64,000 nucleotides of DNA from Candidatus Peribacteria bacterium (GTDB lineage Bacteria; Patescibacteriota; Gracilibacteria; Peribacterales; Peribacteraceae): NCBI GenBank assembly GCA_023245865.1, contig JAHFJN010000001.1:787637-851636 (forward strand), read 5' to 3'. Positions 229 to 53,523 of the stretch are shown here, in pieces. The translations under genes and the position numbers were made by a program. Within the stretch, counting starts at the first letter, position 1. Each line of letters starts with the position of its first letter. The notes below the pieces were generated by a model. The model ran no database searches. It was not told where the DNA came from and was given only the letters and a program-made list of their open reading frames with translations.

Positions 229-1428
229 ATGCCCCTCAATGTCGCTTCCATCCGCCGGCAATTCCCCTTTCTCACGTCGCATGATGGCGCAACACCCTCC
301 GTGTACCTCGACAGTGCCGCAACAACGCAGAAGCCGAAAGCAGTCCTCGATGCGATGCAGCATTTTTATGAGCATGACTGCGGCAACGTGCACCGGGGGA
401 TGCATCGGCAGACCGAACGCGCGACGGATGCCTATGAAGCGGCACGCATTGCGGTGCAACACTTCATCAACGCAGCCCAAAGCGAAGAAATAATTTTTAC
501 CAAAAATTGCACCGAGGCATTGAACCTCGTCGCACACAGCTGGGGACGCACATTTTTGAAAAGCGGCGACACCGTGGCGCTCTCCATCCTCGAGCATCAC
601 AGTAACATCGTTCCGTGGTTGCAGCTTAAAGAAGAACGCAACATCGATATTCGATGGTTGGATCTCGACAACGTCGATCTCAGCGGCGTGAAACTCGTCT
701 CGATCACGGGCTTAAGTAACGTGCTCGGGACCGCTCCCGATCTCCCCGCGATCATCGCGGCCGCGCACAGAGCCGGAGCACTCGTCTGCATCGATGCCGC
801 GCAGATGGTCGGGCACTTCCCGATCGACGTCCAAGCGCTCGATTGTGATTTCCTCGCGTTCTCGGGCCATAAACTCTACGGACCGACCGGCATAGGCGTG
901 CTCTACTGCAAACGAAAACTCTTGGAATCGATGCCGCCGTTTCTCGGCGGCGGTATGATGATCCGCGACGTCACGCAAGAGAGCTTCACGGCTGCCAACA
1001 TCCCCGCACGTTTCGAGGCGGGTACGCCGCCGATCGCAGAAGCGGTCGGACTCTCTGCTGCGATCGATTGGCTCACAGAGTTTCCGTGGAATGATCGCAC
1101 TCAGCACGAACAAAAATTACTGGCGACCGCACTCACCGCCTTGCAATCGATTGATGGCCTCACCATTCTCGGGCCGGATAATCCGAAGGATGTGCGGGGC
1201 TGCATCAGCTTCGTCCTGGACGGCGTCCACCCGCACGACCTCACGGAGCTTTTAGGCGAGCGCGGTTTCAGTCTTCGTGCCGGGCACCACTGTGCCCAGC
1301 CGCTCCATGAACACATAGGCATCGCTGCAAGCACCCGCCTGAGTGTTGGGATCTACAATACTGAGGAAGAAATCACATCGCTTGCATCTGCGATCAAGGA
1401 GTGCATGGTTCGACTACGCTCACCATGA
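229..1428 (+). CDS. sufS: Cysteine desulfurase SufS
   Basis: Class V aminotransferase features: YLDSAATTQKP, HRGMHRQTERATDAYE, DAAQMVGHFPIDVQALDCDFLAFSGHKLYGPTGIGVLY, RAGHHCAQPLH. Confidence 0.96.
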   Translation: MPLNVASIRRQFPFLTSHDGATPSVYLDSAATTQKPKAVLDAMQHFYEHDCGNVHRGMHRQTERATDAYEAARIAVQHFINAAQSEEIIFTKNCTEALNLVAHSWGRTFLKSGDTVALSILEHHSNIVPWLQLKEERNIDIRWLDLDNVDLSGVKLVSITGLSNVLGTAPDLPAIIAAAHRAGALVCIDAAQMVGHFPIDVQALDCDFLAFSGHKLYGPTGIGVLYCKRKLLESMPPFLGGGMMIRDVTQESFTAANIPARFEAGTPPIAEAVGLSAAIDWLTEFPWNDRTQHEQKLLATALTALQSIDGLTILGPDNPKDVRGCISFVLDGVHPHDLTELLGERGFSLRAGHHCAQPLHEHIGIAASTRLSVGIYNTEEEITSLASAIKECMVRLRSP

Positions 1429-1483
1429 CATCTTTTCATCCTCTTATTCTTCTTACTCCTCTGGTTCTTCTTGCTCCTCTCAC

Positions 1484-1870
1484 ATGGATCTCTACGCCGA
1501 AAACATCCTCGATCACTACCATCACCCGCACCATAAACTCCCTCTCCCCTTGGGAGAGGGTTGGGGTGAGGGGCGCGTCGTACGCGAAGAAAAAAATGTC
1601 AGCTGCGGCGATAAACTTACAGTCGCCCTCCTGATTGAAGATAACCACCTCACCAACATCGCCTGGACCGGCGAAGGCTGCGCCATAAGCCAAGCCGCGA
1701 TGTCGATGCTGAGTGACGAGCTCATCGGAAAATCCCTCACAGAGATCAATGCCCTCACGCCTAAAACCATCCTCGCCCTCCTCAACGTCCCGATCGGCAC
1801 GCGTCGCATGAAGTGCGCGCTGCTTGGACTCGAGGCAGTGAAGAATGCGATAAGTATGTGGAGCCGCTGA
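1484..1870 (+). CDS. sufU: SufU-type Fe-S scaffold / sulfur-transfer protein
   Basis: MDLYAENILDHYHHPHHK...CGDKLTV...WTGEGCAISQAAMSMLSDELIGKSL; in-frame ATG at 1484 directly downstream of sufS. Confidence 0.9.
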   Translation: MDLYAENILDHYHHPHHKLPLPLGEGWGEGRVVREEKNVSCGDKLTVALLIEDNHLTNIAWTGEGCAISQAAMSMLSDELIGKSLTEINALTPKTILALLNVPIGTRRMKCALLGLEAVKNAISMWSR

Positions 1871-1933
1871 CCGGGATTGAACCGGTGACCTACACATTAC
1901 CATTGTGTTGCTCTACCACTGAGCTACAGCGGC
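1863..1933 (-). tRNA. tRNA-Thr(GGT)
   Basis: Reverse complement GCCGCTGTAGCTCAGTGGTAGAGCAACACAATGGTAATGTGTAGGTCACCGGTTCAATCCCGGTCAGCGGC folds as a cloverleaf; anticodon loop ATGGTAA. Confidence 0.9.
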
Positions 1934-1984
1934 GAATCGACGCTTGTGGATCTTAAGTTTTTTTGAGCAGAAGTCCAACATGAA

Positions 1985-2006
1985 AGACGCCACCTTCGGT
2001 GGCGTC
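1985..2006 (-). terminator. Hairpin downstream of the 45-aa ORF
   Basis: GACGCCACCGAAGGTGGCGTC followed by TTTC on the minus strand. Confidence 0.55.
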
Positions 2007-2030
2007 GTCCCAAGCTACAACACGATCTTA

Positions 2031-3819: not shown

Positions 3820-4008
3820 GATGTAGGAGTAACGATCTGTATGAAGATACAAGAAACAAGATACAAGAGACAAACAAGGAGTGAGATTTAAAAGTTTATA
3901 TATTGAATTTTGTTTGCATCTTGATTTCTTGCTTCTTCGGATTTCGTTATCCTACGTTCAATAATCATATTGACCAATCCGCATTCCATGGTTATCCTGC
4001 CGACCTCC

Positions 4009-4218: not shown

Positions 4219-4286
4219 ATACACGGTGTCATCCTGAGCACGGTCGAAGGGCGACACTTCTTTGCCATGTCATGGTTCGACTGTGC

Positions 4287-4688
4287 TCACCATGACACAC
4301 CACCCCTTCCCTCTTTGATTTCCCCCCTCCTCTTTTTTTCTGTGAGCATCTTCTCCTTCGCCTTCTTTGATCGTCTCTGTTTCTGTTTGCGCAGTTTGAA
4401 TATTTTTTTCGCACGCGCGGATTCCTTCCCTCGCACGTGTTCCTCGATCTTCGCAATCAGTAACTTGTACGCAGAGATTCGATTCTTGCTCTGCTCGCGG
4501 TGTTTCTGCACCGTCACTTCGATGCCGGTTGCTGCGTGTCGCAGCTGCACCGCGCTGCTAGTTTTATTGATCTTCTGCCCCCCTTTGCCGCTCCCACGAA
4601 TGAAGGATTCATGGATATCTTCGGGGCGAACCCTAAGCTGCATCGCGAGCGCGAGGATCGGGGGTGGAAGAGAAACAGGGAATGGCAT
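4287..4688 (-). CDS. Class I release factor-like / ArfB-like protein with GGQ motif
   Basis: RPEDIHESFIRGSGKGGQKINKTSSAVQLRHAATGIEVTVQKHREQSKNRISAYKLL. Confidence 0.85.
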   Translation of the reverse strand: MPFPVSLPPPILALAMQLRVRPEDIHESFIRGSGKGGQKINKTSSAVQLRHAATGIEVTVQKHREQSKNRISAYKLLIAKIEEHVRGKESARAKKIFKLRKQKQRRSKKAKEKMLTEKKRRGEIKEGRGGVSW

Positions 4689-5748: not shown

Positions 5749-8223
5749 ATGAAGATCTCCCTCGAATGGCTCGGCGACTATGTGACATGGATCGAACATG
5801 ATCCCCTGAAGATCGCAGATCGGCTCACACTGCGCACGGCCGAGGTGGAGGAGGTGGAAGTGCAGGGAAAGCTCTTAGAACACTGCTGTGTGGGAGAAGT
5901 CTTGAGCGTCGAGAGACATCCGAGCGCCGATCGCCTCAGTGTGTGCACGGTCCAAACGGACAAAGGCAAAAAAACAGTCGTATGCGGCGGCACCAATGTA
6001 CGGTCCGGCATGCTCGTGGCCTTTGCACACGTAGGTGCGACCGTGAAGTGGCACGGGGAAGGATTGCAAACTCTCGAACGCGTGAAGATCCGCGGCGTCG
6101 ACAGTGAAGGCATGATCTGCGCGGCGGAGGAATTGGAGCTGGAAACAATGTTCCCGCCAAAGAAAGAAGATGGCGAACGGCCGGTCGTGGATTTTTCACA
6201 GCTACGAGCTACGAGCTACGAGCTACGAGTCGGATCATCGCTGCGCGATGCACTCGCGCTCACCGACGTAGTCCTCCACCTCAATAATACCGCCCTTACG
6301 ATGCGGCCGGATCTCTTTTCACATATTGGGGTTGCCCGCGAATGTGTCGCACTGGGCCTTGCGAAGTGGAAGAAGGAACCCGCCCTCGCCACTGCGAAGT
6401 TTCCAAAGACAAAGGGCATCACGATGCACGTAGAATGCGCTGCGCTCGTTCCCCGCTACCTCGGCTGCACGATCGATATCGATGCAATTGACGAAACGCC
6501 CTCTTGGATGAAACGGCGTCTGATGGCTTTGGGACTGCGCCCGATCAATCTTCCTGTCGACATCACAAACTACGTCGCAAGCGAAATCGGCGTCCCCCTC
6601 CACAGCTTCGACATCGATGATCTGCGCGGTGACATTCATCTGCGTCTCTCGAAAAAAGGAGAATCGATCACGACGCTCGATGGCGTGGAGCGATCACTCC
6701 CGGATGGCGCACTCGTACTCAGCGATGGACAAGGCATCTTCGACTTACTCGGGATCATGGGAGGGCTACGCAGCAGCACGAAGGCCTCCACCAGGCATAT
6801 CTACTTGCACGCGGCGGCGCTTGACCCTGCGACCATCCGTCGCGCCGTGATGGCGACAGGACATCGCACCGATGCCGCTACCGTCTATGAAAAAGGGGTC
6901 GCGCCCATCACAACAGAGCAAGGGTTTTTCCGGGCGCTCACCCTCATGCTCGAACTCATGCCGGGAGCATTGATTGCTTCGTCACTCGAAAACAAGGGAA
7001 CGAACGGCAAAGTCTCCGCCATTGCGCTCTCGCTCGACCGCGTCCATCAACTCCTCGGCGCGGCGATCGGAGAAAAAACGATTGTGAAAATCCTGACGGA
7101 TCTTGGGTGCACCGTCGAAGAGACAAGAGACAAGAGACAAGAGACAAGCAAGAGGAAAAATAAAAAAAGTTTGCATCTTGCATCTTGCATCTTGCATGTT
7201 TCCATTCCCGCGCATCGCCTCCGTGACCTGCGTGGTGAGCACGACCTCATCGAGGAAGTCGGCCGCGTGTACGGGTACGAGAATATACAAGATGCAATGC
7301 CTGTGGCACCGATCCAAATTCCCAAACGCGATGAGCGGCTACACAAGATCCGCGATGCACTCAAGGCGGCGAACTTCTTCGAGATCGTCCCACTCTCCTT
7401 CGTGAGTCCAGAGCTCCTCCGGCGCTGCGCCACAGCAACCGAGAATGCAATCGCGATCGAGAACCCGCTCGGCGAAGAGACTTCTTTATTGCAGACTTCC
7501 ACCCTCCCGCATCTGCTCACGCACGCACAGCAGAATTTCCTCGGTGCGCAAGGCCCTCTGAAGACCTTCCACTGTGCGCATGTATTCGAGAAAGGAAAAC
7601 AGGAACATCTCGAGCTTGGACTCCTCGTGTCCGCGAAAGCTGCGACTGACCTCGTGCATGATCCATTCCTGATCGCAAAGGAAAATCTCCTGAACGCCTG
7701 CAACGACGCAGGGTATGAACTTTCCATCGTACTTCCTTCTGCAACTCCCCCCTTCGCTCACCCCGGGCGATGCGCTGCCCTTCTGCATCAGAAAAAAGAG
7801 TGCGGATGGATCTTCGAGATCCACCCCGCGATTCGCTCGGCGTTTGATCTCCCCCACCGCTGCGCTGCAATCATCCTCAATCTCACCTCTTTATTAAAAG
7901 ACTCTCCGCTGCAGAAAATCGCCGCGCCCCTCCCCGCCTTCCCCGCAGTGACCTACGATGAAACGATCGCACGGTCGCACACGCAATCGATCGAAAAATT
8001 ACTGCAGACTTCCCGTGCCGCCAGTACCCTCCTCGAAGACGTTCATATCCATGATCTCTACCAAAGTAAAAATAGTGTCATTCCGAGCGTAGTCGAGGAA
8101 CGACTCATTCCCAATTATAATGTCACTTTCCGTTTCACCTATCGCGCACAGGACCGGACATTGACAGAGGAGGAGGCAAAAGTTGAGCATGGGCGGGTGA
8201 TGGCAAAGATGGCTACCATATAA
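5749..8223 (+). CDS. pheT: Phenylalanyl-tRNA synthetase beta subunit
   Basis: MKISLEWLGDYV...; tRNA-binding domain VGEVLSVERHPSADRLSVCTVQTD; B3/B4 and B5 regions; three in-frame repeat insertions (see findings). Confidence 0.95.
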   Translation: MKISLEWLGDYVTWIEHDPLKIADRLTLRTAEVEEVEVQGKLLEHCCVGEVLSVERHPSADRLSVCTVQTDKGKKTVVCGGTNVRSGMLVAFAHVGATVKWHGEGLQTLERVKIRGVDSEGMICAAEELELETMFPPKKEDGERPVVDFSQLRATSYELRVGSSLRDALALTDVVLHLNNTALTMRPDLFSHIGVARECVALGLAKWKKEPALATAKFPKTKGITMHVECAALVPRYLGCTIDIDAIDETPSWMKRRLMALGLRPINLPVDITNYVASEIGVPLHSFDIDDLRGDIHLRLSKKGESITTLDGVERSLPDGALVLSDGQGIFDLLGIMGGLRSSTKASTRHIYLHAAALDPATIRRAVMATGHRTDAATVYEKGVAPITTEQGFFRALTLMLELMPGALIASSLENKGTNGKVSAIALSLDRVHQLLGAAIGEKTIVKILTDLGCTVEETRDKRQETSKRKNKKSLHLASCILHVSIPAHRLRDLRGEHDLIEEVGRVYGYENIQDAMPVAPIQIPKRDERLHKIRDALKAANFFEIVPLSFVSPELLRRCATATENAIAIENPLGEETSLLQTSTLPHLLTHAQQNFLGAQGPLKTFHCAHVFEKGKQEHLELGLLVSAKAATDLVHDPFLIAKENLLNACNDAGYELSIVLPSATPPFAHPGRCAALLHQKKECGWIFEIHPAIRSAFDLPHRCAAIILNLTSLLKDSPLQKIAAPLPAFPAVTYDETIARSHTQSIEKLLQTSRAASTLLEDVHIHDLYQSKNSVIPSVVEERLIPNYNVTFRFTYRAQDRTLTEEEAKVEHGRVMAKMATI
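7118..7198. repeat. Heptamer micro-repeat hairpin (agacaag / cttgcat family) inside pheT
   Basis: agacaagagacaagagacaagagacaag ... cttgcatcttgcatcttgcat; same family near 3849, 15047, 20547, 45346. Confidence 0.9.
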
Positions 8224-12650: not shown

Positions 12651-12654
12651 GAAT

Positions 12655-12748
12655 ATCGGAATAACGGGGATTGGAATAACGGGGCCCCTGTTACCCCGTT
12701 ACTCTGTTATTCTGTTACTCTGTTACACCGTTACTCTGTTATTCTACA
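12655..12748. repeat. Tandem/inverted micro-repeat (gaataacgg / ccgttactctgttattctg family)
   Basis: Period about 8; same family at 19848-19905 and 49921-49995. Confidence 0.85.
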
Positions 12749-14316: not shown

Positions 14317-16179
14317 TTGTTGTAGCGCACTCATGGCACTGCGATTCTTCGGATCGATCGCGAGGACTGCGCGGAACTGCGCGACGGCTTTCGCCTGCTC
14401 CCCCGTCTGATAGTAGAGAAGCGCCACATTGATCCGTGCGCCGATCGCACGCGGCTCGAGACTGATCGCTCGTTCGTACGCCACGATCGCCGCATGAAAA
14501 TCGCTCAGGTGCGTCTCTGCAATGCCGAGGTTATAGAGCGCGTCGGGGAAGTACGGATTGATGACGAGCGCGGCTTCATACTGTGCCTTAGCCTGCGCGT
14601 AGTCCCCTTCGTCTGCATAAAGCGCACCGAGATTCACATAAACTTCCTCGTACGTGGGATCCGCGGCGAGTGCATTTTTATATTCCCGCTGCGCCTCGGT
14701 CAGTTTTCCTTCCTCCCCGTACACAATTCCGAGACCGAAATGAGCAAATGGATCTTTCGGATCAAGTTGTAATGCGTGCATGTATGCATCGATCGCTTCG
14801 GAGTATCTTTTTTCTTTCCGGTACGCCGCGCCGAGGTTGCTCAGTGTGCGCGGGTGCGGTCGGATGGCGAGGGCCTTTTTGTATTCTTCGATCGCATGCG
14901 CATTATCTCCATCCAATCTGTACATGTTCCCGAGATTATTATGCGCGACATGCGAAGAGTCGGGGTAGATTGCCAGCACGTTCTCAAAAAGCGTGCGCGT
15001 GTTGGTCCAGACGAGGGATTGGGCATGGGCGCGGAGACTTAAAACGAAGAGACAAGAGACAAGAAACAAGAAACAAATTTGTCTCTTGCATCTTGTATCT
15101 TGGAAATTCGTACCCATCATTGCCCCCACCGCAATCAACACCCCGATCGACGGCACATACACGTACCGATCGGACGCGAAGTAGATATCGAGCTGTCCGC
15201 CCTTCGCAAAGTTTAAAAGTGTCGGAGCGACCGTGAGAAGATAGAAAAAGATTCCGCACGCGGCGACGCGGTTTCTGCGGAGGAGCCATATGCCAAGGAG
15301 CAGCACGAGGAAAGCAATGATCATCGGCACATAAAAATCACTGGAGGTGATTGTGATCGCCTTCGTATACGGGTAGAGCACCGAAAGATCGGTCGGCCAG
15401 AAGAATTTCTCCAGGTAGAACGCTGTGCTCTTAAACGCCATCAGTATTTTCGCACTCACGGTCGAGGACGCGATCACCCCCTTCTTCCCAATAACAGCGA
15501 CGAGACCGACCACGAACGAAAGCACCGCGTACGGAATCTTGTCCATCCACATCGCGCGATCCGCCTTTCGCCCTTGTGCATAGTCGAAGAGGAGCAGAAC
15601 AACCGGGAGCGTCGCGATCATCGCTTTACTGAGGAGCCCGAGGAGAAAGAGGATGATACTGACGTAGTACCACTTTCTTCCCTCTCCTCTATACATATAC
15701 GCAACGATCGCCCCGAGGAAGAAAAACGTACTCAGGACATCCTTCCGCGCGCTCGCCCACAGGACAGCTTCTGTGTGGAGCGGATGCACGAGGAATAGTA
15801 GGCCACAGAAGAGAGCAATCCATCGTCGGCGGAGAAGCAGAAGCAGAGTCCACGCGACGAGCAATGCATTGAGGGTGTGGAGGAGGAGATTGTCGAAGTG
15901 ATACAGAAAGGGGTGCACGCCCGTGAGGAAATACTCCACTTGATACGTGAAAAAGGTGACGGGGATGTAGAGCTCCGGATCAAAATGCGTGAAGATCCAT
16001 CGAATGGTACCGGGTGTGATGGCGCGGATCGCAGGATTTTCGTAGATGAGCATACCGTCATCCCACCGGACAAAGGGGTTCCACAGTGACCACCCGTAGA
16101 TGGCAGCTGCGATTGCAAAGAAGAAGACAATGATGCCAAATACTCTCTGAAATGATGGCAGTTTGGCGGGCTCATCCAT
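14302..16179 (-). CDS. Polytopic membrane protein with C-terminal TPR repeats (TMTC/PMT-like)
   Basis: N-terminal WNPFVRWDDGMLIYENPAIR plus many TM segments; C-terminal repeats such as DSSHVAHNNLGNMYRLDGDNAHAIEEYKKALAIRP. Confidence 0.85.
   Translation of the reverse strand: MDEPAKLPSFQRVFGIIVFFFAIAAAIYGWSLWNPFVRWDDGMLIYENPAIRAITPGTIRWIFTHFDPELYIPVTFFTYQVEYFLTGVHPFLYHFDNLLLHTLNALLVAWTLLLLLRRRWIALFCGLLFLVHPLHTEAVLWASARKDVLSTFFFLGAIVAYMYRGEGRKWYYVSIILFLLGLLSKAMIATLPVVLLLFDYAQGRKADRAMWMDKIPYAVLSFVVGLVAVIGKKGVIASSTVSAKILMAFKSTAFYLEKFFWPTDLSVLYPYTKAITITSSDFYVPMIIAFLVLLLGIWLLRRNRVAACGIFFYLLTVAPTLLNFAKGGQLDIYFASDRYVYVPSIGVLIAVGAMMGTNFQDTRCKRQICFLFLVSCLFVLSLRAHAQSLVWTNTRTLFENVLAIYPDSSHVAHNNLGNMYRLDGDNAHAIEEYKKALAIRPHPRTLSNLGAAYRKEKRYSEAIDAYMHALQLDPKDPFAHFGLGIVYGEEGKLTEAQREYKNALAADPTYEEVYVNLGALYADEGDYAQAKAQYEAALVINPYFPDALYNLGIAETHLSDFHAAIVAYERAISLEPRAIGARINVALLYYQTGEQAKAVAQFRAVLAIDPKNRSAMSALQQLGAQ
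15047..15103. repeat. Heptamer micro-repeat hairpin inside the TPR membrane-protein gene
   Basis: gagacaagagacaagaaacaagaaacaaatttgtctcttgcatcttgtatcttgg. Confidence 0.9.
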
Positions 16180-19848: not shown

Positions 19849-19911
19849 CTGAGTAACGGAGTAACAGGAACCCGATATTCCGATCCCCGTTATTTCTGAT
19901 ACTCTATCCTC

Positions 19912-20583
19912 GTGCTCCGCCTCCCCGCTGCCCTCGAACGCACGCTGCAGCATCTCTTCCCGAACATTCGGGAGCGCGAGCAGTTCGTGATCGAGGCGGT
20001 GCAAACTGCGATCGACATCGAGCAATCAACAAACCGCACACCACACTCCGTCGGCGGCACGTTGCATCTTTTTTGCGACGGCGGCTCGCGCGGCAACCCG
20101 GGCCAAGCCGCGATCGCGGCGATCTTGGAGGACCCCATGGAGGGCAAGGTGCTCAGTGAGCACATGGAACGCATCGGCATCGAGACCAACAACATCGCCG
20201 AGTACAAGGCATTGATCGCCGGACTGAAATTGGCCCTGCCGTATCAACCGAACCGCCTCATCTGCCACCTCGACAGTGAGCTCGTCGTGCGACAACTCAA
20301 TGGCGAGTACCAGGTGAAGATGCCGACGCTCAAGCCCTACTTCGATGAAATACAAGCGCTCGCGGCGGAGCTCCCCGACGTCGTCTTCACGCATATTCCA
20401 CGCGAGGACAACTACCGCGCCGACAAACTCGTCAACCGCGCGCTTGATGAACTGCCTGCCCCTCCATCGCCAACTCTGCCCGCGCAAAAATCCCTGTTCT
20501 CTCCGGAACCCGAGCGACCCGGCGATCTCTACAGACAAAGCCTAAGATATAAGACCCAAGATACAAACAAGAACGAAGGATAA
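19912..20583 (+). CDS. Ribonuclease HI family protein (GTG start)
   Basis: LHLFCDGGSRGNPGQAAIAAILED...NNIAEYKALIAGLKLAL...CHLDSELVVRQLNGEYQVK...FTHIPREDNYRADKLVNRALD. Confidence 0.92.
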   Translation: MLRLPAALERTLQHLFPNIREREQFVIEAVQTAIDIEQSTNRTPHSVGGTLHLFCDGGSRGNPGQAAIAAILEDPMEGKVLSEHMERIGIETNNIAEYKALIAGLKLALPYQPNRLICHLDSELVVRQLNGEYQVKMPTLKPYFDEIQALAAELPDVVFTHIPREDNYRADKLVNRALDELPAPPSPTLPAQKSLFSPEPERPGDLYRQSLRYKTQDTNKNEG

Positions 20584-20650
20584 AAAAATAAAATTGAATA
20601 TTGTTTCTTTTGATTTGTCTGTCTCTTGGATCTTGTCTCTTGTATCTTCG
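20547..20650. repeat. Heptamer micro-repeat, inverted arms, RNase H / vanW gap
   Basis: aagatataagacccaagatacaaacaag ... ttgtctgtctcttggatcttgtctcttgtatctt. Confidence 0.85.
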
Positions 20651-27454: not shown

Positions 27455-28184
27455 TCTCCGCATTCGTAAACACCTCGCTCACATCCTCATCTTCCTCAAG
27501 CACTTCCATGAACCGCATGACTTTTTCAGAGCTCGCGGGATCGCTGATGGCAACTTTATTTGTCGGTACGAACTTCAAGCCCGCACTCACAATCTCATAG
27601 CCGTTGCTTTTGAGAAAATCCCGAACTTGCGTCCAGTTATGCAGATCGGTCACAACCGTGAGGATGTCACCATTCACTTCCAAATCCTCTGCCCCGAAAT
27701 CAATCAACTCTAACTCCAATTCCTCCAATTTTCCATTTTCAATTTTCAATTTTTCATTACGTGCCGCGACAACGCCGGCACGTCGAAACATCCACAGCAC
27801 AGAACTTGATTCCGCAAATGTTCCCCCATTTTTATTGATCACGGTCTTTAAATTACTCAGCGTGCGATTTTTATTGTCGGTGAGACATTCGATCAAATAC
27901 GCCGTCCCCACCGGGCCCATGGCCGCATACACCACCTCCTCCATCATCGCACCTTTCAGCTCCCCCGTGCCCTTCTTCACCGCACGCTCGATGTTCGCAT
28001 TAGGAACGCTATCTGCCTTCGCATTATCGATCGCAGTGCGCAGACTCGGATTCATCGACGCGTCGCCTCCCCGCTGCGCCGCGATCTCAATCAACTTCGC
28101 ATGCCGCGTGAACACCTTGCCACGCTGAGCGTCTGCGGCTGTTTTTTTGACCCGAATATTGTGCCATTTGGAGTGACCGGACAT
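27444..28184 (-). CDS. yebC: YebC/PmpR family protein
   Basis: MSGHSKWHNIRVKKTAADAQRGKVFTRHAKLIEIAAQRGG; contains the in-frame repeat insertion RNEKLKIENGKLEEL. Confidence 0.95.
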   Translation of the reverse strand: MSGHSKWHNIRVKKTAADAQRGKVFTRHAKLIEIAAQRGGDASMNPSLRTAIDNAKADSVPNANIERAVKKGTGELKGAMMEEVVYAAMGPVGTAYLIECLTDNKNRTLSNLKTVINKNGGTFAESSSVLWMFRRAGVVAARNEKLKIENGKLEELELELIDFGAEDLEVNGDILTVVTDLHNWTQVRDFLKSNGYEIVSAGLKFVPTNKVAISDPASSEKVMRFMEVLEEDEDVSEVFTNAEITE

Positions 28185-28290
28185 GGTATCGAAGAAAATA
28201 GCACACAAAGTATATCGCAGATTCGTTTCTCGTTCGCTCGTTTCTGGTTTCTAGTTCGAGTAACAAGCTAACGAGCAACCGGCAACGTTG

Positions 28291-33196: not shown

Positions 33197-33231
<35 letters not shown>

Positions 33232-33490: not shown

Positions 33491-33523
<33 letters not shown>

Positions 33524-34022: not shown

Positions 34023-34054
<32 letters not shown>

Positions 34055-34421
34055 AGACGGGGACCCACACAAGCGGTGGAGCATGGGGTTTAATTCGATG
34101 ACAAGCGAAGCACCTCACCCAGGCTTGACATCTCGGGAATCCTGCAGAAATGTGGGAGTGCCGCAAGGAACCCGAAGACAGGCGCTGCACGGTCGTCGTC
34201 AGCTCGTGCCTTGAGGTGTACTGTTCAGTCAGCCAACGAGCGCAACCCTGATCCCGTGTTGTTTTTTCACGGGAGACTGCCGCCTCCAAGGCGGAGGAAG
34301 GTCAGGATGACGTCAGATCAGCGTGGCCCTTATGCCTGGGGCAACACCCGTGCTACAATGGTCGGTACAAACGGCAGCGAAGCCGCGAGGTGAAGCTAAT
34401 CCGAGAAAACCGATCTCAGTC

Positions 34422-34453
<32 letters not shown>

Positions 34454-34519
34454 TTGGAATCGCTAGTAACCGTGAATCAGCTACGTCACGGTGAATATGT
34501 TCCTGGGTCTTGTACTCAC

Positions 34520-36689: not shown

Positions 36690-36776
36690 GTCATGGTGAG
36701 CTTGTCATGGTGAGCGTAGTCGAACCACGAACCATGAACGCACCATGTCGTTCCTCGACTACGCTCGGAATGACAC
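36690..36776. repeat. Dispersed inverted repeat (catggtgagc.tagtcgaac family)
   Basis: tgtcatggtgagcttgtcatggtgagcgtagtcgaaccac...tcgttcctcgactacgctcggaatgacac; related copies at 1404, 4228, 4262, 8075, 40551, 40965, 42848. Confidence 0.85.
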
Positions 36777-37646
36777 ACATTCATATTTTTTCTGAATCAT
36801 CCCCACCACCTTCGCTCTCACTTCTTCATTCGCAATCCTTTGCGTAATGTCGCCCAAAAAACCTTGTACGAACATCGCACGGGCTTCGTGCAGTGGGATA
36901 CCGCGGGACGCAAGATAGAAAAGATCTTCAGGAGTGACCCGCGCGACCGTCGCGCTGTGGCTCGCTTTCACGTCGTTCGTTTTGATCTCCAACCCCGGTA
37001 CCGCGTGGACCTTGGCGCTTGGATCGAGCATGAGGACACGCTGGGTGAGGTAGGTATTGGTCCCACCGCCTTTCAGGCCGATATCGATGAGTCCCTTTGC
37101 ACTGATATGTGCGGTGCCCTCCGCAACGCCCTGCATGAGAATCTCCCCTCCGCCATTTGTTGCATCAAAGACATTACGCACGGTTAACGTCTGCTTCTCA
37201 TCGCCTTTTGCATAGAACATCCAATCAACCGCGCTCTCGGCGTTGGCACCCGACACGCGTGAAAGCAGATCGTGCGCGACGTCACGGCCCCCGAGCGTCA
37301 CCTGCTGCCACTGCATGGAGGCGCCAGCTGCGACGCTGCTTTGCTGTTTGATCGTGATGGAACAGGGTGAATCCACGGCATTGATGCAGAGCACCGTGAG
37401 GCGCGCCTCTTCTTCGACGATCACTTCGGTCTCATGCATCATTCCCTCTCCCCTTGCGGGAGAGCCTGCCTGCCGGACAGGCAGGGGTAAGGGTGAGGGG
37501 CATTCCAACCAAATCGTCACCGTCGCTTTTGATCGCGGCGCTGCGTGAATCGTAAGATGCGATTGCGATGCATCAAGGTGATACACGATATCCTCTTGTA
37601 CGGTACCTTCCTCGATGCGGCAGATGATCGGCTCTATCGATTGCAT
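36759..37646 (-). CDS. sufD: SufD-like Fe-S assembly protein (SufBD family)
   Basis: C-terminal SufBD core: LMLDPSAKVHAVPGLEIKTNDVKASHSATVARVTPEDLFYLASRGIPLHEARAMFVQGFLGDI. Confidence 0.92.
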   Translation of the reverse strand: MQSIEPIICRIEEGTVQEDIVYHLDASQSHLTIHAAPRSKATVTIWLECPSPLPLPVRQAGSPARGEGMMHETEVIVEEEARLTVLCINAVDSPCSITIKQQSSVAAGASMQWQQVTLGGRDVAHDLLSRVSGANAESAVDWMFYAKGDEKQTLTVRNVFDATNGGGEILMQGVAEGTAHISAKGLIDIGLKGGGTNTYLTQRVLMLDPSAKVHAVPGLEIKTNDVKASHSATVARVTPEDLFYLASRGIPLHEARAMFVQGFLGDITQRIANEEVRAKVVGMIQKKYECVSFRA

Positions 37647-39416: not shown

Positions 39417-40889
39417 CTACCCGACACTCCCTTCCATCTCTAATTCTATCAATCGATTCATTTCCACGGCATATTCCAGCGGGAGTAACCGCACGATCGG
39501 TTCGATGAAGCCGTTGACGATCATCGCGCGCGCCTCGTCCTCGGGAATGCCGCGGCTGCAGAGATAAAAAATATCTTCTTCGCTGAGTTTGCCCACCGTC
39601 GCCTCGTGGGCGATCGTGACATCGTTATTGCGGATCTGAATATCGGGGCTCGTGTCGGTGCGCGAGATCTCATCGAGCAGGAGCGCGTCACACTCGACAT
39701 TGGCGATGCAATCGTGCGCGTGGGGAGCGATCTTGAGCTGTCCGCGGTAGACCGCCACTCCCCCCGCCTTGCTGATGGATTTACTCGTGACTTTACTGCT
39801 GGTGTGCGCTGCCTGATGAAAAATCTTCGCGCCGGTGTCCTGCCATTGGCCCTTGTTCGCAAATGCGATCGCCATGTGGTCGCACCGCGCGCCTTCGCCC
39901 ACAAGTACCGAGCACGGATAGAGCATGGTGACGCCGCTGCCCATATTGCCGCCGATCCACTCCATCACGGCGTCCCGCTCCACGATCGCACGCTTGGTGT
40001 TTAAGTTATACGTATCGCGGCTCCAGTTTTCAACGCTTGAGTAGCGGCACTTCGCATTTGGTTTCACGAAGATTTCCACCAGTCCCGCGTGCAGTGCATG
40101 CGATCCATATTTCGGCGCCGAGCATCCCTCGATGTAGTGCACGTCGGCACCTTCTTCGACCACGATCAGTGTGTGCTCGAACTGGCCCATGTTTTTGGCA
40201 TTCATGCGGAAGTACGCCTGTAAGGGGTCCCGCACTTTCACATTTTTTGGGACATAGAGGAACGTGCCACCGCTCCAGACCGCGCCGTGGAGCGCCGCGA
40301 ACTTGTGATCGCTTGCGGGGACACACTTCATGAAATACTGCTGCACAAGATCAGGATGTTGTTCGAGTGCATCGTCCATATCCAAAAAAATCACCCCTTG
40401 CTCCTCCCATTCTTTTTTTAAATTGTGATACACCACTTCCGATTCATACTGCGCACCGACACCCGCAAGCATTGTGCGCTCGGCTTCGGGGATCCCGAGG
40501 CGATCGTAGACGCGGCGGATGTCCGCGGGAACCTCCGCCCAGCTGCTAGGAGTGTCACCCTGAGCACCGTCGAAGGGCGATGCGTAATAAATGATGTCAT
40601 CGAGATCGAGCGTGCTGAGGTCAGCCCCCCACGTCGGAAGTTCCTTTTCGTGAAAAATTTGTAAGCTGGCAAGACGGTGCTCGAGCATCCAGGTCGGCTC
40701 TTTTTTCTCCGTGGAAATCCTGCGCACCAATGCCTCGGAAACTCCCCTGATGACGCCATCCGCGTATGGCGAGGGATTGGCTTCATCGAAGATGCTGCGT
40801 TCGAGGTGGCCGAAAATTGTCTTGTCCTCCGTAGCCTTGGCAAAGGAGGATTTTGCCTTCTGCTCGCGGAGAACGGTGGTACGGGTCAT
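39417..40889 (-). CDS. sufB: Fe-S cluster assembly protein SufB
   Basis: GVIFLDMDDALEQHPDLVQQYFMKCVPASDHKFAALHGAVWSGGTFLYVPKNVKV...HYIEGCSAPKYGSHALHAGLVEIFVKPNAKCRYSSVENWSRDTYNLNTKRA. Confidence 0.97.
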   Translation of the reverse strand: MTRTTVLREQKAKSSFAKATEDKTIFGHLERSIFDEANPSPYADGVIRGVSEALVRRISTEKKEPTWMLEHRLASLQIFHEKELPTWGADLSTLDLDDIIYYASPFDGAQGDTPSSWAEVPADIRRVYDRLGIPEAERTMLAGVGAQYESEVVYHNLKKEWEEQGVIFLDMDDALEQHPDLVQQYFMKCVPASDHKFAALHGAVWSGGTFLYVPKNVKVRDPLQAYFRMNAKNMGQFEHTLIVVEEGADVHYIEGCSAPKYGSHALHAGLVEIFVKPNAKCRYSSVENWSRDTYNLNTKRAIVERDAVMEWIGGNMGSGVTMLYPCSVLVGEGARCDHMAIAFANKGQWQDTGAKIFHQAAHTSSKVTSKSISKAGGVAVYRGQLKIAPHAHDCIANVECDALLLDEISRTDTSPDIQIRNNDVTIAHEATVGKLSEEDIFYLCSRGIPEDEARAMIVNGFIEPIVRLLPLEYAVEMNRLIELEMEGSVG

Positions 40890-40958
40890 AGGGAGGGAAG
40901 TATAGCATGAAAAACCATGTCATGGTGAGATGCTCATCTGTTATTGCATATTATTGTG

Positions 40959-41336
40959 TCAGTCTGAGCCTGTCGAAGACTCGACACAACGCTGCAAGGA
41001 ATCGCATGTCGACATTTCGACAAGCTCAATGTGACACGCTTTTAATTGTTCAATTTTATTGATGGAAAGCCCCGGCAACTTTTCATATTCCCTCCTTATC
41101 AAGGCCTCTTTTTTCTTCCTGCTCCATCCTTTTACTTTTGTTTCCCACGCAATGGCCTCATTCACATCTCTAAATGTAGCAACATATACCAACGTAACCG
41201 GCCTACGATTGTGCGTGTACGAGGACGGATCAAGCCCCTGCGCGTGTTCACTCAGTCTCCTCTCATAATCATTCGTCACTCCCGTGTAGTAGCTACCATC
41301 GTTACACCGCAGCATGTAGACGAAATAGTTGTCCAT
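40959..41336 (-). CDS. GIY-YIG domain endonuclease-like protein with repeat-derived C-terminus
   Basis: MDNYFVYMLRCNDGSYYTGVTNDYERRLSEHAQG...AIAWETKVKGWSRKKKEALI; tail ACHIELVEMSTCDSLQRCVESSTGSD is repeat-encoded. Confidence 0.9.
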   Translation of the reverse strand: MDNYFVYMLRCNDGSYYTGVTNDYERRLSEHAQGLDPSSYTHNRRPVTLVYVATFRDVNEAIAWETKVKGWSRKKKEALIRREYEKLPGLSINKIEQLKACHIELVEMSTCDSLQRCVESSTGSD

Positions 41337-42784: not shown

Positions 42785-42895
42785 AGAAAAGGAGGGAAAA
42801 GAGAAAAGAGTATAGCGCTATGATACGTTACTCGCCAGAGTGTGACAGGGTTCGTGGTTCGACTGTGCTCACCATGACACATTTCATTGTACATT

Positions 42896-43732
42896 CTACA
42901 TTTTTAGTTCAATCCGCGGCTTCACCGCGTATTTCTCATATCCTTCCTTTTCAAGTCTTTTCGCAAACTCCGCCCCTCCGCTCTCCACAATCTTCCCCGC
43001 AACCATCACATGCACGCGATCGGGGGTGATGTACTCCAAGATACGAGCGTAGTGGGTGACAATAAGAAACGATGGGCGGTAAGCGGGTAGCGGTAAGCGA
43101 CTAGCCGCTGATCGCTGATCGCTCTGCGCTCGTAAGTCATTGACTCCTTCCGCAACAATCTTCAGTGCATCAACATCAAGCCCGCTGTCCGTTTCATCGA
43201 GCAGTGCGAGCCGGGGCCTCAGGATACTCATTTGCAAAATCTCCGCCTTCTTCTTTTCTCCTCCGGAAAACCCCTGATTCACGAATCGCTCGGCAAACAA
43301 TGGATCCATGTTTAATTTTTTCATTTCAGCGAGGAGGACTTTCTGAAACTGGAGCGGCGATAAACGCTTATCACTACTCGCTACTCGCTTATCGCTCGCA
43401 CAATGTGCCCGGTGCGCGGCCAGGAGAAAACTTCTGAGTGTGACGCCCGCGATTTCTTTGGGGTACTGAAACGCTAAAAATAATCCCGCTTGAGATCGCT
43501 CGTGTGGTTCCATAGCGAGTAAGTCCTTGCCACGAAACCGCACTGCGCCTGCGGTAATCGCATACTTCGGGTGCCCCATCAGCGCATTGACCAATGTGGA
43601 TTTCCCGGAACCGTTCGGCCCCATGATGGCATGCACCTCGCCTTCGTTCATCTCCAAATCAAGACCACGGACGATCGGAGTATTTTCCACGCTGACGTGG
43701 AGGCCTTTGATGGAGAGGAGAGAAACCATCAC
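42896..43732 (-). CDS. sufC: Fe-S assembly ATPase SufC
   Basis: MGPNGSGKSTLVNALMGHPKYAITAGAVRFRGKDLL...FSGGEKKKAEILQMSILRPRLALLDETDSGLDVDALKIV; two in-frame repeat insertions. Confidence 0.97.
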   Translation of the reverse strand: MMVSLLSIKGLHVSVENTPIVRGLDLEMNEGEVHAIMGPNGSGKSTLVNALMGHPKYAITAGAVRFRGKDLLAMEPHERSQAGLFLAFQYPKEIAGVTLRSFLLAAHRAHCASDKRVASSDKRLSPLQFQKVLLAEMKKLNMDPLFAERFVNQGFSGGEKKKAEILQMSILRPRLALLDETDSGLDVDALKIVAEGVNDLRAQSDQRSAASRLPLPAYRPSFLIVTHYARILEYITPDRVHVMVAGKIVESGGAEFAKRLEKEGYEKYAVKPRIELKM

Positions 43733-45340: not shown

Positions 45341-45342
45341 CG

Positions 45343-45460
45343 AAGAAACAAGACGTAAGATGCAAGATCCAAACAAGAACCAATTCCAATAATCAAACGC
45401 AAAATTTGCTTATTGACCCCTAGCATTTATTTGTTTCTTGTTTCTTGTCTCTTGGAATTT
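45343..45460. repeat. Heptamer micro-repeat, inverted arms, ferredoxin / TPR gap
   Basis: gaagaaacaagacgtaagatgcaagatcc ... tgtttcttgtttcttgtctcttgg. Confidence 0.85.
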
Positions 45461-45470: not shown

Positions 45471-46259
45471 TCACGCCGCCACCGGCACCTCTCTGAGCTG
45501 CTGCGCAATCGACTGCAACTTGCTCTTCACCTCTTCATTGTACGGTTCCAATTTGTTGATGCGACGATACACTTCCTCCGCTCGCTCGCGCAGATTCAAT
45601 TGCAGGTAACACTCGGCAAGAAGATGGAGCAGTTCGGTATTGCGAGAGAGGAATGCGGATGCTTTTTCGAGCAGCGGCGCGGCTTCCTCAAACCGCTGCG
45701 CGGCAATGCAGGCGCGACCGAGGGCCGCCGTACGCTCGGGATTTTTCGCATCACGATTGAGCGCTTCTTGGTAGGCGTAGCACGCTTCGACGTACTTGCC
45801 CTGACGATAGTACGAAAGACCGAGATTTGCGTGGAACGACACATCGTCGCGACCTTGGAGGAGCTCGCGGTACATTGCCTCTGCTTTTGATTCCCTGCCG
45901 GTCGTCAGATACAGCTTCGCAAGTTGCGCCGCCGTGTCATAGTCGCGCGGGTGAATGGTGAGCGCTTGAATGAGGAGCCGCTCGACCTCGTCGGGCTTGC
46001 CCTGCTTGTCCGCTTTTTCGGCACTTCGCACGAGCGACCGCACTTGCTGGAGTTCAATTGCGGACGTGCGCGGACTCTTGCGGGGACGCGTCACGGGTGT
46101 CTCTTCGAGGATCACCGCCCCGCGCGCCTCGGCGGATTCAAACCGCTGACGGATCGAACGAACAAACCGTCGAATCGTTCGCTGTCGGAGCATGAGTCGG
46201 AGCCCCAGCAGAAGCGCGATGCCGACGAGTGAGCCGATGAAGACCAATGCGTAAATCAC
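45471..46259 (-). CDS. TPR repeat protein with N-terminal TM
   Basis: MIYALVFIGSLVGIALLLGLRLML; repeated TPR units. Confidence 0.88.
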   Translation of the reverse strand: MIYALVFIGSLVGIALLLGLRLMLRQRTIRRFVRSIRQRFESAEARGAVILEETPVTRPRKSPRTSAIELQQVRSLVRSAEKADKQGKPDEVERLLIQALTIHPRDYDTAAQLAKLYLTTGRESKAEAMYRELLQGRDDVSFHANLGLSYYRQGKYVEACYAYQEALNRDAKNPERTAALGRACIAAQRFEEAAPLLEKASAFLSRNTELLHLLAECYLQLNLRERAEEVYRRINKLEPYNEEVKSKLQSIAQQLREVPVAA

Positions 46260-46448
46260 GAAATGCGAAAGAAGTGGGAAGACAACTCAACAAGAAACCA
46301 CGATGTCGCAAGGATGTCCGCGATCCAGTTTTGCGATAGTGAGCCGATGAAGACCAATGCGTAAATCACGAAATGCGAAAGAAGTGGCAAGACAGCTTAA
46401 CAAGAAACCACGACGCCGCAAGGATGTTCACGATCCGGTTTTGCGACG
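46229..46448. repeat. Tandem ~110-bp duplication (46229-46338 / 46339-46448)
   Basis: Both copies start gtgagccgatgaagaccaatgcgtaaatcacgaaatgcgaaagaagtgg and end with cgatcc[a/g]gttttgcga; a few substitutions. Confidence 0.92.
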
Positions 46449-46950: not shown

Positions 46951-46956
46951 CGTATC

Positions 46957-49921: not shown

Positions 49922-50000
49922 TTAACGGACGGAATAACGGAATAACAGAGTAACAGGCTCCCGTTACTCCGGTCCCCGATATTCTGATATTCTTGTACTC

Positions 50001-51513: not shown

Positions 51514-51545
51514 TGTCAATTAATCAATTAATTGATTAATTGACA
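51514..51545. promoter_or_regulatory. 32-bp perfect palindrome overlapping a -35 box (candidate operator)
   Basis: TGTCAATTAATCAATTAATTGATTAATTGACA; terminal TTGACA is 18 nt from TACACT (51564-51569), directly before the ATG at 51576. Confidence 0.8.
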
Positions 51546-51575
51546 GTTAAGGAAAAAGAGACGTACACTGGAGAT

Positions 51576-52004
51576 ATGGGCAAGATCGATTTTCGTACAC
51601 TGACGAAAGACCATCGTGGCGCTCTGGAGAGAGAATTGACGACAGCGCTGAAAACCTTCGGCACTAAAAAAGAGGGTATTGAATTTCTCCAAGAACTTCT
51701 CACAGAAAGCGAGCTTGTTATGGTCGGGCGGCGCATTCAGATCGCAAAGAGATTGTTGCTCAATCAATCGCACCCACGCATCGCGAAGGACCTGGGTGTA
51801 GGCATGGCAACGGTGCGCAGCGTTGACGCCACGCTGCGAAAACACCTGCAGGAATACCGACACGTCCTCTCCTCTCTCGGGAAAAAGAATGGCAAGGAAT
51901 TCGCACGCGAAGACCACTACAGCACCCATTTCCTCGGAGAACTGCGGCATAAATATCCGGGCAAGATGGCGCTGCTGAATTTGCTCCTTGGGGACGATGT
52001 GTAG
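51576..52004 (+). CDS. TrpR/YerC/YecD-family HTH regulator
   Basis: FGTKKEGIEFLQELLTESELVMVGRRIQIAKRLLLNQSHPRIAKDLGVGMATVRSVDATLRKHL. Confidence 0.88.
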   Translation: MGKIDFRTLTKDHRGALERELTTALKTFGTKKEGIEFLQELLTESELVMVGRRIQIAKRLLLNQSHPRIAKDLGVGMATVRSVDATLRKHLQEYRHVLSSLGKKNGKEFAREDHYSTHFLGELRHKYPGKMALLNLLLGDDV

Positions 52005-52040
52005 GTATACCAACTTCACAGTTGTGATATACTGCGAGTC

Positions 52041-52511
52041 ATGACCCACTCTGATCACGACGAAGGCGAACTCGAAGTAAAGTTCCGTCCGGAAAACTCC
52101 CGAGCGGTGATTGAGGGCAAGACCGTCGTCCCCTTTCAGTCATTTGTCACCCTCGTGCTCCAGCGCAAAGTCTTGAGTCTCTTTAAAACGTGGGGTAAGC
52201 ACCCCGTCATCGTCGACTCGGAGCTCCTCACGAGCATGGCGAGCGCCGCGCAGGATAATCAGGAGAACCGAACCAACATGGTCCTCGTGAGCCTGTGCCT
52301 TGGTGCGATCCTTGGAATCGCATTCTTCAGTCTCGTGCAGACGGTGCTCCTGAAGTTTGAGATTGTACTCGGGATGAAAGAACTTCTGATCATCACCGGG
52401 AGCGTGGTTGTGATCGCAGTGCTGCTGAAAGTCGCGATGAAACTGCGAAGATTGCCGCGGGGGGAGAAGTTGGTCGAGACGGTGGAAGGGATTTCCTCTT
52501 TCCTTCGGTAA
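52041..52511 (+). CDS. Hypothetical membrane protein (156 aa)
   Basis: Two TM helices; TATACT seven nt before the ATG. Confidence 0.7.
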   Translation: MTHSDHDEGELEVKFRPENSRAVIEGKTVVPFQSFVTLVLQRKVLSLFKTWGKHPVIVDSELLTSMASAAQDNQENRTNMVLVSLCLGAILGIAFFSLVQTVLLKFEIVLGMKELLIITGSVVVIAVLLKVAMKLRRLPRGEKLVETVEGISSFLR

Positions 52512-52596
52512 GGAAGGTAACGGAGGTAATGAAAGGAAGGAAGGTGATATAATTTCTACCTTCTATCCTTGCCGGACCTTCCGTACTTCCCTTACT

Positions 52597-53523
52597 TTGT
52601 ATCAGGAACACGTTGCCATCGGCACCAAGACCACCATGCGTATTGGCGGCGTGGCGCGGTACTTTACAGAACTTGAGACAAGAGCAGATGCGCAGACAGC
52701 GGCACAATTTGCACGCGCGAACAATCTTCCGCTCATCGTCCTTGGCAGCGGCAGCAACACGCTCTTCGCAGATGGAGAAATCAACGCAGTGATCGTTCGA
52801 ATCAAGGAGCGCCCATGCGCGATTGAAGGTAACTGCGTACGTGTTGGCGGCGGCAATAATCTCGCGATGCTGATCAATGCATTGGCCACGCAGAATCTCG
52901 ATCTCTCACCCTTAACCGGAATCCCGGGGACAGTCGGCGGCGCGATTTTTGGGAATGCCGGCCAAGGACCGAATGGGATTTGGATCGATCATTTTGTGAA
53001 GGAGGTCGTTGTCTTTGTGGATAGCGGATGGAAAACTTACTCGTATGAAGAATGTGAGTTTGGATATCGGGAGAGCATGTTCAAAAAGCTGACCGCTCAC
53101 CGCTTATCGCTTATCGCTCCATTGATTTGGGAAACAACGCTGGAAATTCCTTCACGCCCATCGGCGGAAGTGAAGGCAGAGATCGAGCGACTCCTCAAAA
53201 AACGGATCGAGACACAGCCGCATATAAAAACCGCGGGATCGTGTTTTAAGGCAGTGGGGCAGACGCCCGCTTGGAAACTGATCGACGCCGCGGGGCTACG
53301 TGGATTGAAAGTTGGTGACGTCGAAATTGCAGAGAAACATGCGAATTTTTTGTTGAATACCGGAAAGGCGACTTTTGAAGATGCTGTCACACTTGTAAAA
53401 AATGTGAAAAATGCCGTCAGCGACGAGCTTGATGTCGAAATGCGATTCATCGGCAACGACGGATCGCTGTATTTTAGTGACTGCACAAACATTCGTGGAG
53501 AGGTCCGCCGCCACGGGGGGTGA
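52597..53523 (+). CDS. murB: MurB, UDP-N-acetylenolpyruvoylglucosamine reductase
   Basis: LIVLGSGSNTLFADGEINAVIVRI; LTGIPGTVGGAIFGNAGQ; GYRESMFK; AGSCFKAVGQTPAWKLIDAAGLRGLKVGDVEIAEKHANFLLNTGKAT; start uncertain. Confidence 0.95.
   Translation: MYQEHVAIGTKTTMRIGGVARYFTELETRADAQTAAQFARANNLPLIVLGSGSNTLFADGEINAVIVRIKERPCAIEGNCVRVGGGNNLAMLINALATQNLDLSPLTGIPGTVGGAIFGNAGQGPNGIWIDHFVKEVVVFVDSGWKTYSYEECEFGYRESMFKKLTAHRLSLIAPLIWETTLEIPSRPSAEVKAEIERLLKKRIETQPHIKTAGSCFKAVGQTPAWKLIDAAGLRGLKVGDVEIAEKHANFLLNTGKATFEDAVTLVKNVKNAVSDELDVEMRFIGNDGSLYFSDCTNIRGEVRRHGG

What the first reader, a model, noticed from the sequence alone, without database searches (positions are those of the whole stretch)
1404..53520. 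In-frame invasion of conserved housekeeping genes by several families of short repeats
Repeat words found in intergenic gaps also occur, in frame, inside sufU, sufB (2), sufC (2), sufD, pheT (3), yebC, murB, a HesB-domain gene and a TPR membrane-protein gene; they also form C-terminal tails of sufS (MVRLRSP), a GIY-YIG gene and an RNase H gene. All hosts keep an open frame. Rickettsia palindromic elements are the closest known analogue, but here many unrelated families do the same. Conservation of the flanking residues is judged from family knowledge, not from an alignment.
Basis: partly seen in the sequence, partly recalled or inferred. Interest (0 to 1): 0.78.

Follow-up and report, generated by a model that had tools for sequence, protein, structure and literature searches.

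The report
Hairpin repeats inserted in housekeeping genes
In a very small Peribacteria genome, short hairpin-forming DNA repeats of several kinds sit in frame inside essential genes such as tRNA synthetases and iron-sulfur assembly genes, apparently adding disposable loops to the proteins; this resembles the palindromic elements known from Rickettsia genes, but in a branch of bacteria where I found no earlier report of it.

Summary
The window is from a 1.1 Mb Peribacteria genome. The repeat-coded segments in PheT (3), SufB, SufC (2) and SufD are absent from 18-34 family orthologs; those in SufU, YebC and MurB add residues against solved homologs. They are lineage-specific insertions or loop replacements (net +1 to about +25 residues). 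AlphaFold leaves the PheT fold intact: two of the three inserts are among its least confident segments, the third is a dip. In a 464 kb sample, 45 of 417 predicted genes carry elements, including LeuRS, ValRS, AlaRS, LysRS, LepA, PriA, DnaX, topoisomerase I and Mur ligases.

Two designs dominate: (A) REP-like hairpins GTGTCA-N4-GAGC-N2/3-GTCGA-N4' with covarying stems (81 copies; 0 for the reversed pattern); (B) degenerate heptad arrays such as (AAGANNC)3-4, often inverted pairs folding as 5-bp helices with 2x2 loops. Other lineages carry different repeats in the same loops. No Y1/RAYT transposase is present, nor does its number track copy number.

Closest precedents: Rickettsia palindromic elements (including pheT) and CGTC-tagged REPs. 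Verdict: a new variant of a known kind. The spreading mechanism is unshown; structure-dependent selfish spread filtered by reading frame and loop tolerance is most likely. HesB is weak.

The parts
1401..1430 (-). class A hairpin forming the last residues and stop codon of sufS (MVRLRSP*)
1539..1574 (+). class C hairpin (CCCTCTCCC..GGGAGAGGG plus TTGGGGTGAGGGGC) inside sufU, peptide LPLPLGEGWGEGR
   Evidence: replaces and lengthens a loop relative to solved NifU/SufU-type homologs
3843..3873 (+). heptad array (AAGANNC)4 at the 5' edge of the predicted peptidase gene
4226..4299 (.). intergenic inverted pair (dimer) of class A hairpins
6200..6229 (+). heptad array AGCTACG x4.3 in pheT (ATSYELRV)
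   Evidence: dip to mean pLDDT 68 in block 151-160
7116..7197 (+). inverted pair of heptad arrays (AAGAGAC)4 / (TTGCATC)4 in pheT (TRDKRQETSKRKNKKSLHLASCILH)
   Evidence: folds as 5-bp helices with 2x2 loops, z -3.7; pLDDT below 50
8075..8104 (+). class A hairpin in pheT (VIPSVVEERL)
   Evidence: residues 776-786 pLDDT below 50
15044..15112 (-). inverted pair of heptad arrays inside the TPR membrane-protein gene
   Evidence: hairpin z -5.9
20542..20573 (+). heptad element forming the C-terminal tail of the RNase H-domain gene (YKTQDTNKNEG)
20615..20650 (-). inverted partner heptad array downstream of the RNase H gene
27726..27758 (-). heptad array in yebC (KLKIENGKL), about 5 extra residues against 1lfp
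36703..36776 (.). inverted pair of class A hairpins; the second overlaps the 3' end of sufD
37432..37500 (-). CCTGCC..GGCAGG palindrome nested in a CTCTCCC-type repeat inside sufD (PSPLPLPVRQAGSPARGEG)
40544..40577 (-). class A hairpin inside sufB (PFDGAQGDTP)
40822..40856 (-). class D hairpin (TCCTCC-TTTGCCAAGGCTAC-GGAGGA) in the N-terminal extension of sufB (SSFAKATEDK)
   Evidence: (z -2.7)
40953..41043 (.). inverted pair of class A hairpins forming the C-terminal tail of the GIY-YIG gene
42846..42884 (-). intergenic class A hairpin downstream of sufC
43076..43123 (-). inverted heptad arrays (AGCGNNN/CGCTNNN) in sufC (SDQRSAASRLPLPAYRP)
   Evidence: z -3.3
43361..43396 (-). heptad array (AGCGANN) in sufC (ASDKRVASSDKR)
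45341..45454 (.). inverted pair of heptad arrays, non-coding by the gene calls used here
53083..53122 (+). heptad array in murB (KKLTAHRLSLIAP), about 7 extra residues against 4pyt

Best explanation
The genome has been colonised by several families of short (about 20-90 bp) interspersed repeats whose common feature is the ability to fold into a hairpin: REP-like elements with a fixed loop (GAGC-N2/3-GTCGA) and covarying stems, and degenerate heptad arrays often set as inverted pairs. They spread by copying to new sites, most likely through a process that depends on the folded shape more than on exact sequence. Copies landing in genes survive only when in frame, free of stops and in a tolerant surface loop or at a terminus, and are then probably translated as extra, mostly disordered residues. 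Shown here: presence, frame, lineage specificity, hairpin covariation, recurrence at the same loops, breadth of hosts. Inferred: translation, mobility, structure dependence of spread, near-neutrality. Not identified: the enzyme.
For: Segments absent from orthologs: PheT 29, SufB/SufD 33-34, SufC 18; extra residues against solved homologs. AlphaFold PheT mean pLDDT 87, segments below 50 include 464-468, 470-477 and 776-786, all inside inserts. Class A: 81 genome copies, 0 control; stem pairing 121/128 cells against 56 in shuffles, z 10, equally good inside genes (53/56) and elsewhere (68/72) with no strand bias (8 sense, 6 antisense); GTGTCA end and 6 of 6 dimers in one orientation emerge when anchoring only on the loop. 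Heptads: 43 period-7/14 arrays against 1 shuffled; variation concentrated in two phases (33 of 39; null mean 26.7, maximum 32 of 1000); inverted arrays fold with z -3.3 to -5.9. Reading-frame filter: most class A copies keep 4 of 6 frames open, B1 heptads 5-6. Different families in the same loops of other lineages.
Against: No strain-level pair with filled and empty site was available (no same-genus genome held), so insertion as an event is inferred from diverged orthologs. LepA class A site is only net +1, so replacement or in situ origin at some sites is possible. No mobilising enzyme found. No target-site duplication was tested. Elements are clustered (18 of 102 in one 20 kb stretch), which random spread does not explain.
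Confidence: 0.68

Rival explanations
1. In situ replication slippage: the heptad tracts arose inside the genes by slipped-strand expansion of local seeds and are not dispersed elements.
For: Heptanucleotide repeats were reported as the most abundant category of 5-11 nt repeats in most of the genomes studied and tied to polymerase slippage (work cited in PMC4679880). Several arrays are perfect repeats (AGCTACG x4, TTGCATC x4).
Against: Units within one array differ at fixed phases while the rest is kept; the same degenerate AAGANNC design recurs at many unrelated sites and in 12 genomes of the group; arrays occur as inverted pairs that pair with each other. Does not apply to class A, C or D.
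Confidence: 0.2
2. Transposition in trans by an HUH (Y1) transposase, as proposed for GTAG REPs and RAYTs.
For: REP-like size, covarying stem, dimers in fixed orientation; 32 of 59 searched genomes of the group have PF01797 matches.
Against: No PF01797 match in this 99.7% complete genome; over 36 family genomes copy number and PF01797 number are uncorrelated (Spearman 0.03, p 0.85) and three genomes with 28-81 copies have none. A lost transposase cannot be excluded.
Confidence: 0.12
3. Functional elements kept by selection at the RNA or DNA level (mRNA stability, termination, supercoiling) that happen to lie in genes.
For: Hairpins stay well paired inside coding sequence (53 of 56).
Against: No strand bias in genes (8 sense, 6 antisense); very patchy across one family (0 to 81 copies); insertion into loops of unrelated proteins. 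Good pairing is also expected if copies are young.
Confidence: 0.1
4. The segments are ancestral parts of the protein families, or assembly or gene-calling errors.
For: None found.
Against: Absent from nearly all orthologs and from solved homologs; independent genomes show the same design in the same loops; the hosts remain full-length with conserved residues on both sides; elements are much shorter than sequencing reads. Read mapping was not available.
Confidence: 0.02

Closest known systems
Rickettsia palindromic elements (RPE; Ogata, Claverie and colleagues; reviewed in PMC2229807; R. japonica PMC3767692)
   Same: Small palindromic repeats both intergenic and in frame inside conserved genes; several families; different RPE types near each other in the same gene in different species, pheT being one of the genes shown; translation and activity shown for one case (guanylate kinase).
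   Different: RPEs are given as about 100-150 bp and the unit here is about 20-35 bp (up to about 90 as pairs); different sequences; heptad arrays are not described there; the host here is a Patescibacteria lineage outside Rickettsiales.
CGTC-tagged REPs (Di Nocera et al. 2013, PMC3733652; include RPE-4, RPE-6 and Neisseria dRS3)
   Same: TGTC-type terminal tag, variable complementary stems, dimers mostly in one orientation, intragenic copies in tRNA synthetase and DNA repair genes, no dedicated transposase.
   Different: Stem, loop and tail do not fit the published consensus (long GAGC-N2/3-GTCGA loop instead of 4-5 nt; no general CCA tail); Patescibacteria are not among the five phyla listed for CGTC repeats in that paper.
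Heptanucleotide simple repeats (prokaryotic SSRs; TAACTGA repeats of Beggiatoaceae, PMC4679880; cyanobacterial heptanucleotide STRRs, the last from my own knowledge, not retrieved here)
   Same: Tandem seven-base units, dispersed, with a minority in genes in Beggiatoaceae.
   Different: Many unit sequences, fixed variable phases (AAGANNC), frequent inverted pairs, and common inside essential genes; TAACTGA repeats are mostly upstream of start codons.
Enterobacterial and other small MITEs carrying open frames (ERIC, YPAL and others, PMC2229807)
   Same: In-frame fusion of a mobile palindromic repeat to host genes.
   Different: Larger elements (about 100-200 bp); unrelated sequences.

Membership tests
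CGTC-tagged REP superfamily | CGTC (often TGTC or CCTC) tag at one end | tested here: met
   Anchoring only on the loop and stem pairing, TGTC appears upstream at 31-32 of 37 per position
CGTC-tagged REP superfamily | stem of 8-9 bp with complementary A-T in first and second position | tested here: not met
   4 strongly covarying pairs plus a first A (34/37) whose partner is T in only 16 of 37
CGTC-tagged REP superfamily | loop of 4-5 nt and a CCA-like tail | tested here: not met
   Conserved 11-12 nt region GAGC-N2/3-GTCGA; no general CCA tail downstream
CGTC-tagged REP superfamily | dimers predominantly in one opposed orientation | tested here: met
   6 of 6 close pairs in the sample are plus then minus, tags outward; whether this equals the paper's HH type was not checked
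CGTC-tagged REP superfamily | no dedicated transposase | tested here: met
   No PF01797 in the genome; no correlation across the family. Other enzyme classes not searched
Rickettsia palindromic elements | in-frame insertion in conserved genes and intergenic copies | tested here: met
Rickettsia palindromic elements | different element types at the same gene site in different species (RPE-4/6/7) | tested here: met
   PheT, SufB, SufC, SufD loops
Rickettsia palindromic elements | 100-150 bp element with RPE sequence, in Rickettsiales | tested here: not met
   20-90 bp, Peribacteria; RPE sequences themselves were not available for comparison
Rickettsia palindromic elements | insert is translated and the enzyme stays active | not testable with these tools
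   needs proteomics or biochemistry
RAYT-mobilised GTAG REPs | RAYT (Y1) transposase in the genome | tested here: not met
Slippage-type heptanucleotide repeats | period 7 in excess | tested here: met
Slippage-type heptanucleotide repeats | identical units apart from random mutation | tested here: not met
   Mismatches concentrate in two phases in the 10 arrays with at least 3 mismatches; AAGANNC in 12 genomes, though that search pattern itself fixes the constant phases

The most novel reading that the evidence does not exclude
Hairpin elements with a fixed loop but freely changing, covarying stems, together with heptad arrays whose variable bases fall in the internal loops of the folded pair, are copied by a machinery that reads shape and not sequence and is not a Y1 transposase; in this lineage that process has repeatedly diversified the surface loops of essential proteins.
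Probability: 0.15. Interest if true: 0.8.

Novelty: new variant of a known kind. Interest (0 to 1): 0.5.

Why it matters
It places the Rickettsia-type phenomenon of repeats turned into protein sequence in the Candidate Phyla Radiation, in about a tenth of the genes sampled in a 1.1 Mb genome usually thought of as streamlined. Hosts include many single-copy essential genes, so insert-bearing synthetases and Suf proteins offer natural tests of loop tolerance. The patchy distribution over dozens of related genomes, with different repeats in the same loops, makes the question of how REP-like and heptad repeats spread without an obvious transposase directly testable by comparative genomics. Practically, such words contaminate protein annotation and alignments of Patescibacteria.

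Tried and rejected
A first class A pattern (with an extra T before GAGC) matched nothing anywhere, including in this genome, and was a register error; corrected. Exact 16-mer clustering found few families because copies are degenerate. Shape-only folding of a single class A copy is unremarkable (z -0.8); the evidence for the hairpin is covariation. Y1/RAYT mobilisation was tested and not supported. Rfam holds no match for any of the elements in the window (only 16S rRNA and two tRNAs). A literature search for Peribacteria or Patescibacteria with such repeats found nothing relevant in the open library, which misses most subscription papers. LysRS: the element lies after the conserved core, at the junction with an appended C-terminal region, so it is not a loop insertion there. 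The regex counts for AGCGANN (one mismatch allowed) may include a few chance matches in codon-biased sequence.
Full report
Setting. The window lies at G000:C3:787637-851636 of a 1.106 Mb genome. The nearest named relatives by SufB are Candidatus Peribacteria/Peregrinibacteria metagenome assemblies. No genome of the same genus is held; the closest PheT orthologs are 55-58% identical.

The observation. The HesB-domain gene has only a short palindrome (LPADQAG), did not come up in the search against other own-genome repeats and was not aligned; I do not count it.

Are they insertions? Yes for the tested cases. In an alignment of PheT with 29 family orthologs all three segments are extra residues in loops that vary in length among relatives. 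The same holds for SufB (34 orthologs), SufC (18) and SufD (33). Against solved structures, extra residues appear in SufC, YebC, MurB, SufU, LepA and ValRS. Net gain varies: about 25 residues in PheT site 2, 15 and 5 in SufC, about 4 in SufB, and only 1 at the LepA class A site, so at some places the repeat replaced existing loop residues. An AlphaFold model of PheT from 30 sequences has mean pLDDT 87; four segments fall below 50, and three of them (464-468, 470-477, 776-786) lie in inserts 2 and 3. Insert 1 is a milder dip (block 151-160, mean 68).

How widespread? I took twenty 20 kb stretches plus the window (464 kb) and called genes with a simple hexamer model (417 genes, 87% coding). Combining class A, heptads, C and D gave 102 elements; 57 lie inside genes away from the ends, 7 at C-termini, 30 between genes and 8 at gene edges; 45 genes with a good coding score are hosts. 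Pfam identifies LeuRS, ValRS, LysRS, AlaRS, LepA, PriA, an RsmB/F-type methyltransferase, a DnaX-type clamp loader subunit, topoisomerase I, Mur ligases, an amidase and others. Class A copies are 44% internal against 87% coding sequence, and TRF-defined heptad arrays 55%, so genes are under-represented but far from avoided.

Two designs. Class A: anchoring only on GAGC-N2/3-GTCGA with complementary flanks, the end GTGTCA emerges upstream at about 80-90% per base, and all six close pairs in the sample point the same way. The four stem positions covary: 121 of 128 cells are Watson-Crick against 56 in shuffles (z 10); stems include TGGT/ACCA, CCCT/AGGG, CATT/AATG, TTCC/GGAA and GTCT/AGAC. Pairing is as good inside genes (53/56) as outside (68/72), with no strand bias (8 sense, 6 antisense). 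The genome has 81 copies and none of the reversed pattern; in the family counts run from 0 to 81, and the motif is thinly spread in other Patescibacteria (37 of 287 genomes). Class D (CGCCAAGGCTWCGG loop, the FAKATEDK word) has the same look of fixed loop and changing stem and occurs in 14 of 36 genomes; its covariation was not tested formally.

Class B: heptad arrays. Period 7/14 arrays number 43 in 464 kb against 1 in a Markov shuffle; periods 9 and 12 are also frequent but are multiples of three as expected in coding sequence. Many arrays are about 30 nt, or four units. The AAGANNC family keeps AAGA and C and varies NN; across arrays with at least 3 mismatches, 33 of 39 fall in two phases (null maximum 32 in 1000). 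It occurs in 12 of 60 genomes searched, with low or zero background in most of them. Arrays are often inverted pairs, and these fold into 5-bp helices separated by 2x2 internal loops in which the NN bases lie (PheT site 2 z -3.7, TPR gene z -5.9; SufC z -3.3, less regular). An octad family (GTTANTCY) was found only between genes, 5 of 5, all in the window; numbers are too small for a test.

Recurrence at the same loops. PheT loop 1 carries different heptad words in L007 and L009; loop 2 carries others in L009, L017, L018, L019 and L028; the SufB loop carries PFDYAQGDTP in L055; the SufC loop carries heptads in L043 and L063; the SufD loop carries a class C word in L042 and others in L043 and L051. 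This is what loop tolerance predicts.

Mechanism. The anatomy (fixed loop, free but paired stems, opposed dimers, patchy phylogeny) fits selfish or neutral repeats that spread through their folded form and are filtered by frame, stop codons and loop tolerance. Most class A copies keep four of six frames open and AAGANNC elements five or six. I could not identify the enzyme. The usual candidate, a Y1 (RAYT/IS200) transposase, is absent here, and across 36 family genomes its number does not track class A copies (Spearman 0.03, p 0.85). A retention effect may add to the gene fraction: an in-frame copy in an essential gene can only be lost by an in-frame deletion, whereas intergenic copies decay freely. 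That is inference.

Comparison with known systems. The closest precedent is the Rickettsia palindromic element. RPEs lie in frame in conserved genes, one product (guanylate kinase) was shown to be translated and active (PMC2229807), and in R. japonica and relatives different RPE types occupy the same gene, with PheRS beta among the examples (PMC3767692). RPE-4 and RPE-6 are CGTC-tagged REPs, a superfamily without a dedicated transposase, with intragenic copies in tRNA synthetases and repair genes (PMC3733652). Class A shares the TGTC tag, opposed dimers and lack of a transposase, but not the published stem, loop and tail, so I do not file it as a member. Heptanucleotide repeats are known in bacteria (PMC4679880), mostly between genes. 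What is new is the lineage, the load, the coexistence of the two designs in the same genes, and the heptad hairpins with loop-placed variable bases. I rate it a new variant of a known kind.

Noticed in passing
window 53490-53685: A repeat of about 190 bp overlaps the 3' end of murB and supplies its C-terminal residues; at least five other copies (75-82% identical) are in the 464 kb sample.
   Followed up: partly
window 28288-28343 and 31883-31938: The 3' end of rpsR (ribosomal protein S18) is duplicated in direct orientation 3.6 kb away (43 of 46 bases identical in the core), flanking a 1052-aa protein with TPR repeats; this looks like an element that inserted at the end of rpsR.
   Followed up: partly
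window 63187-63903: A reverse transcriptase (PF00078) at the window edge; its IPIGNLTSQLFANVYL motif resembles those of diversity-generating retroelements (from memory, not tested).
   Followed up: partly
window 33190-35314: A 16S rRNA gene without 23S in the window, followed by a LAGLIDADG endonuclease ORF (34862-35314).
   Followed up: no
window 12651-12745, 19835-19905, 49929-49993: Octad arrays (GTTANTCY)n, seen only between genes and only in the window part of the sample.
   Followed up: partly
L124 (G000:C3:460001-480000): Elements are strongly clustered: 18 of 102 lie in this 20 kb stretch, around Mur ligase genes, against a mean of about 4.4 per 20 kb.
   Followed up: no
window 46228-46446: A 109-bp unit in two tandem copies (93% identical) between two genes.
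   Followed up: no
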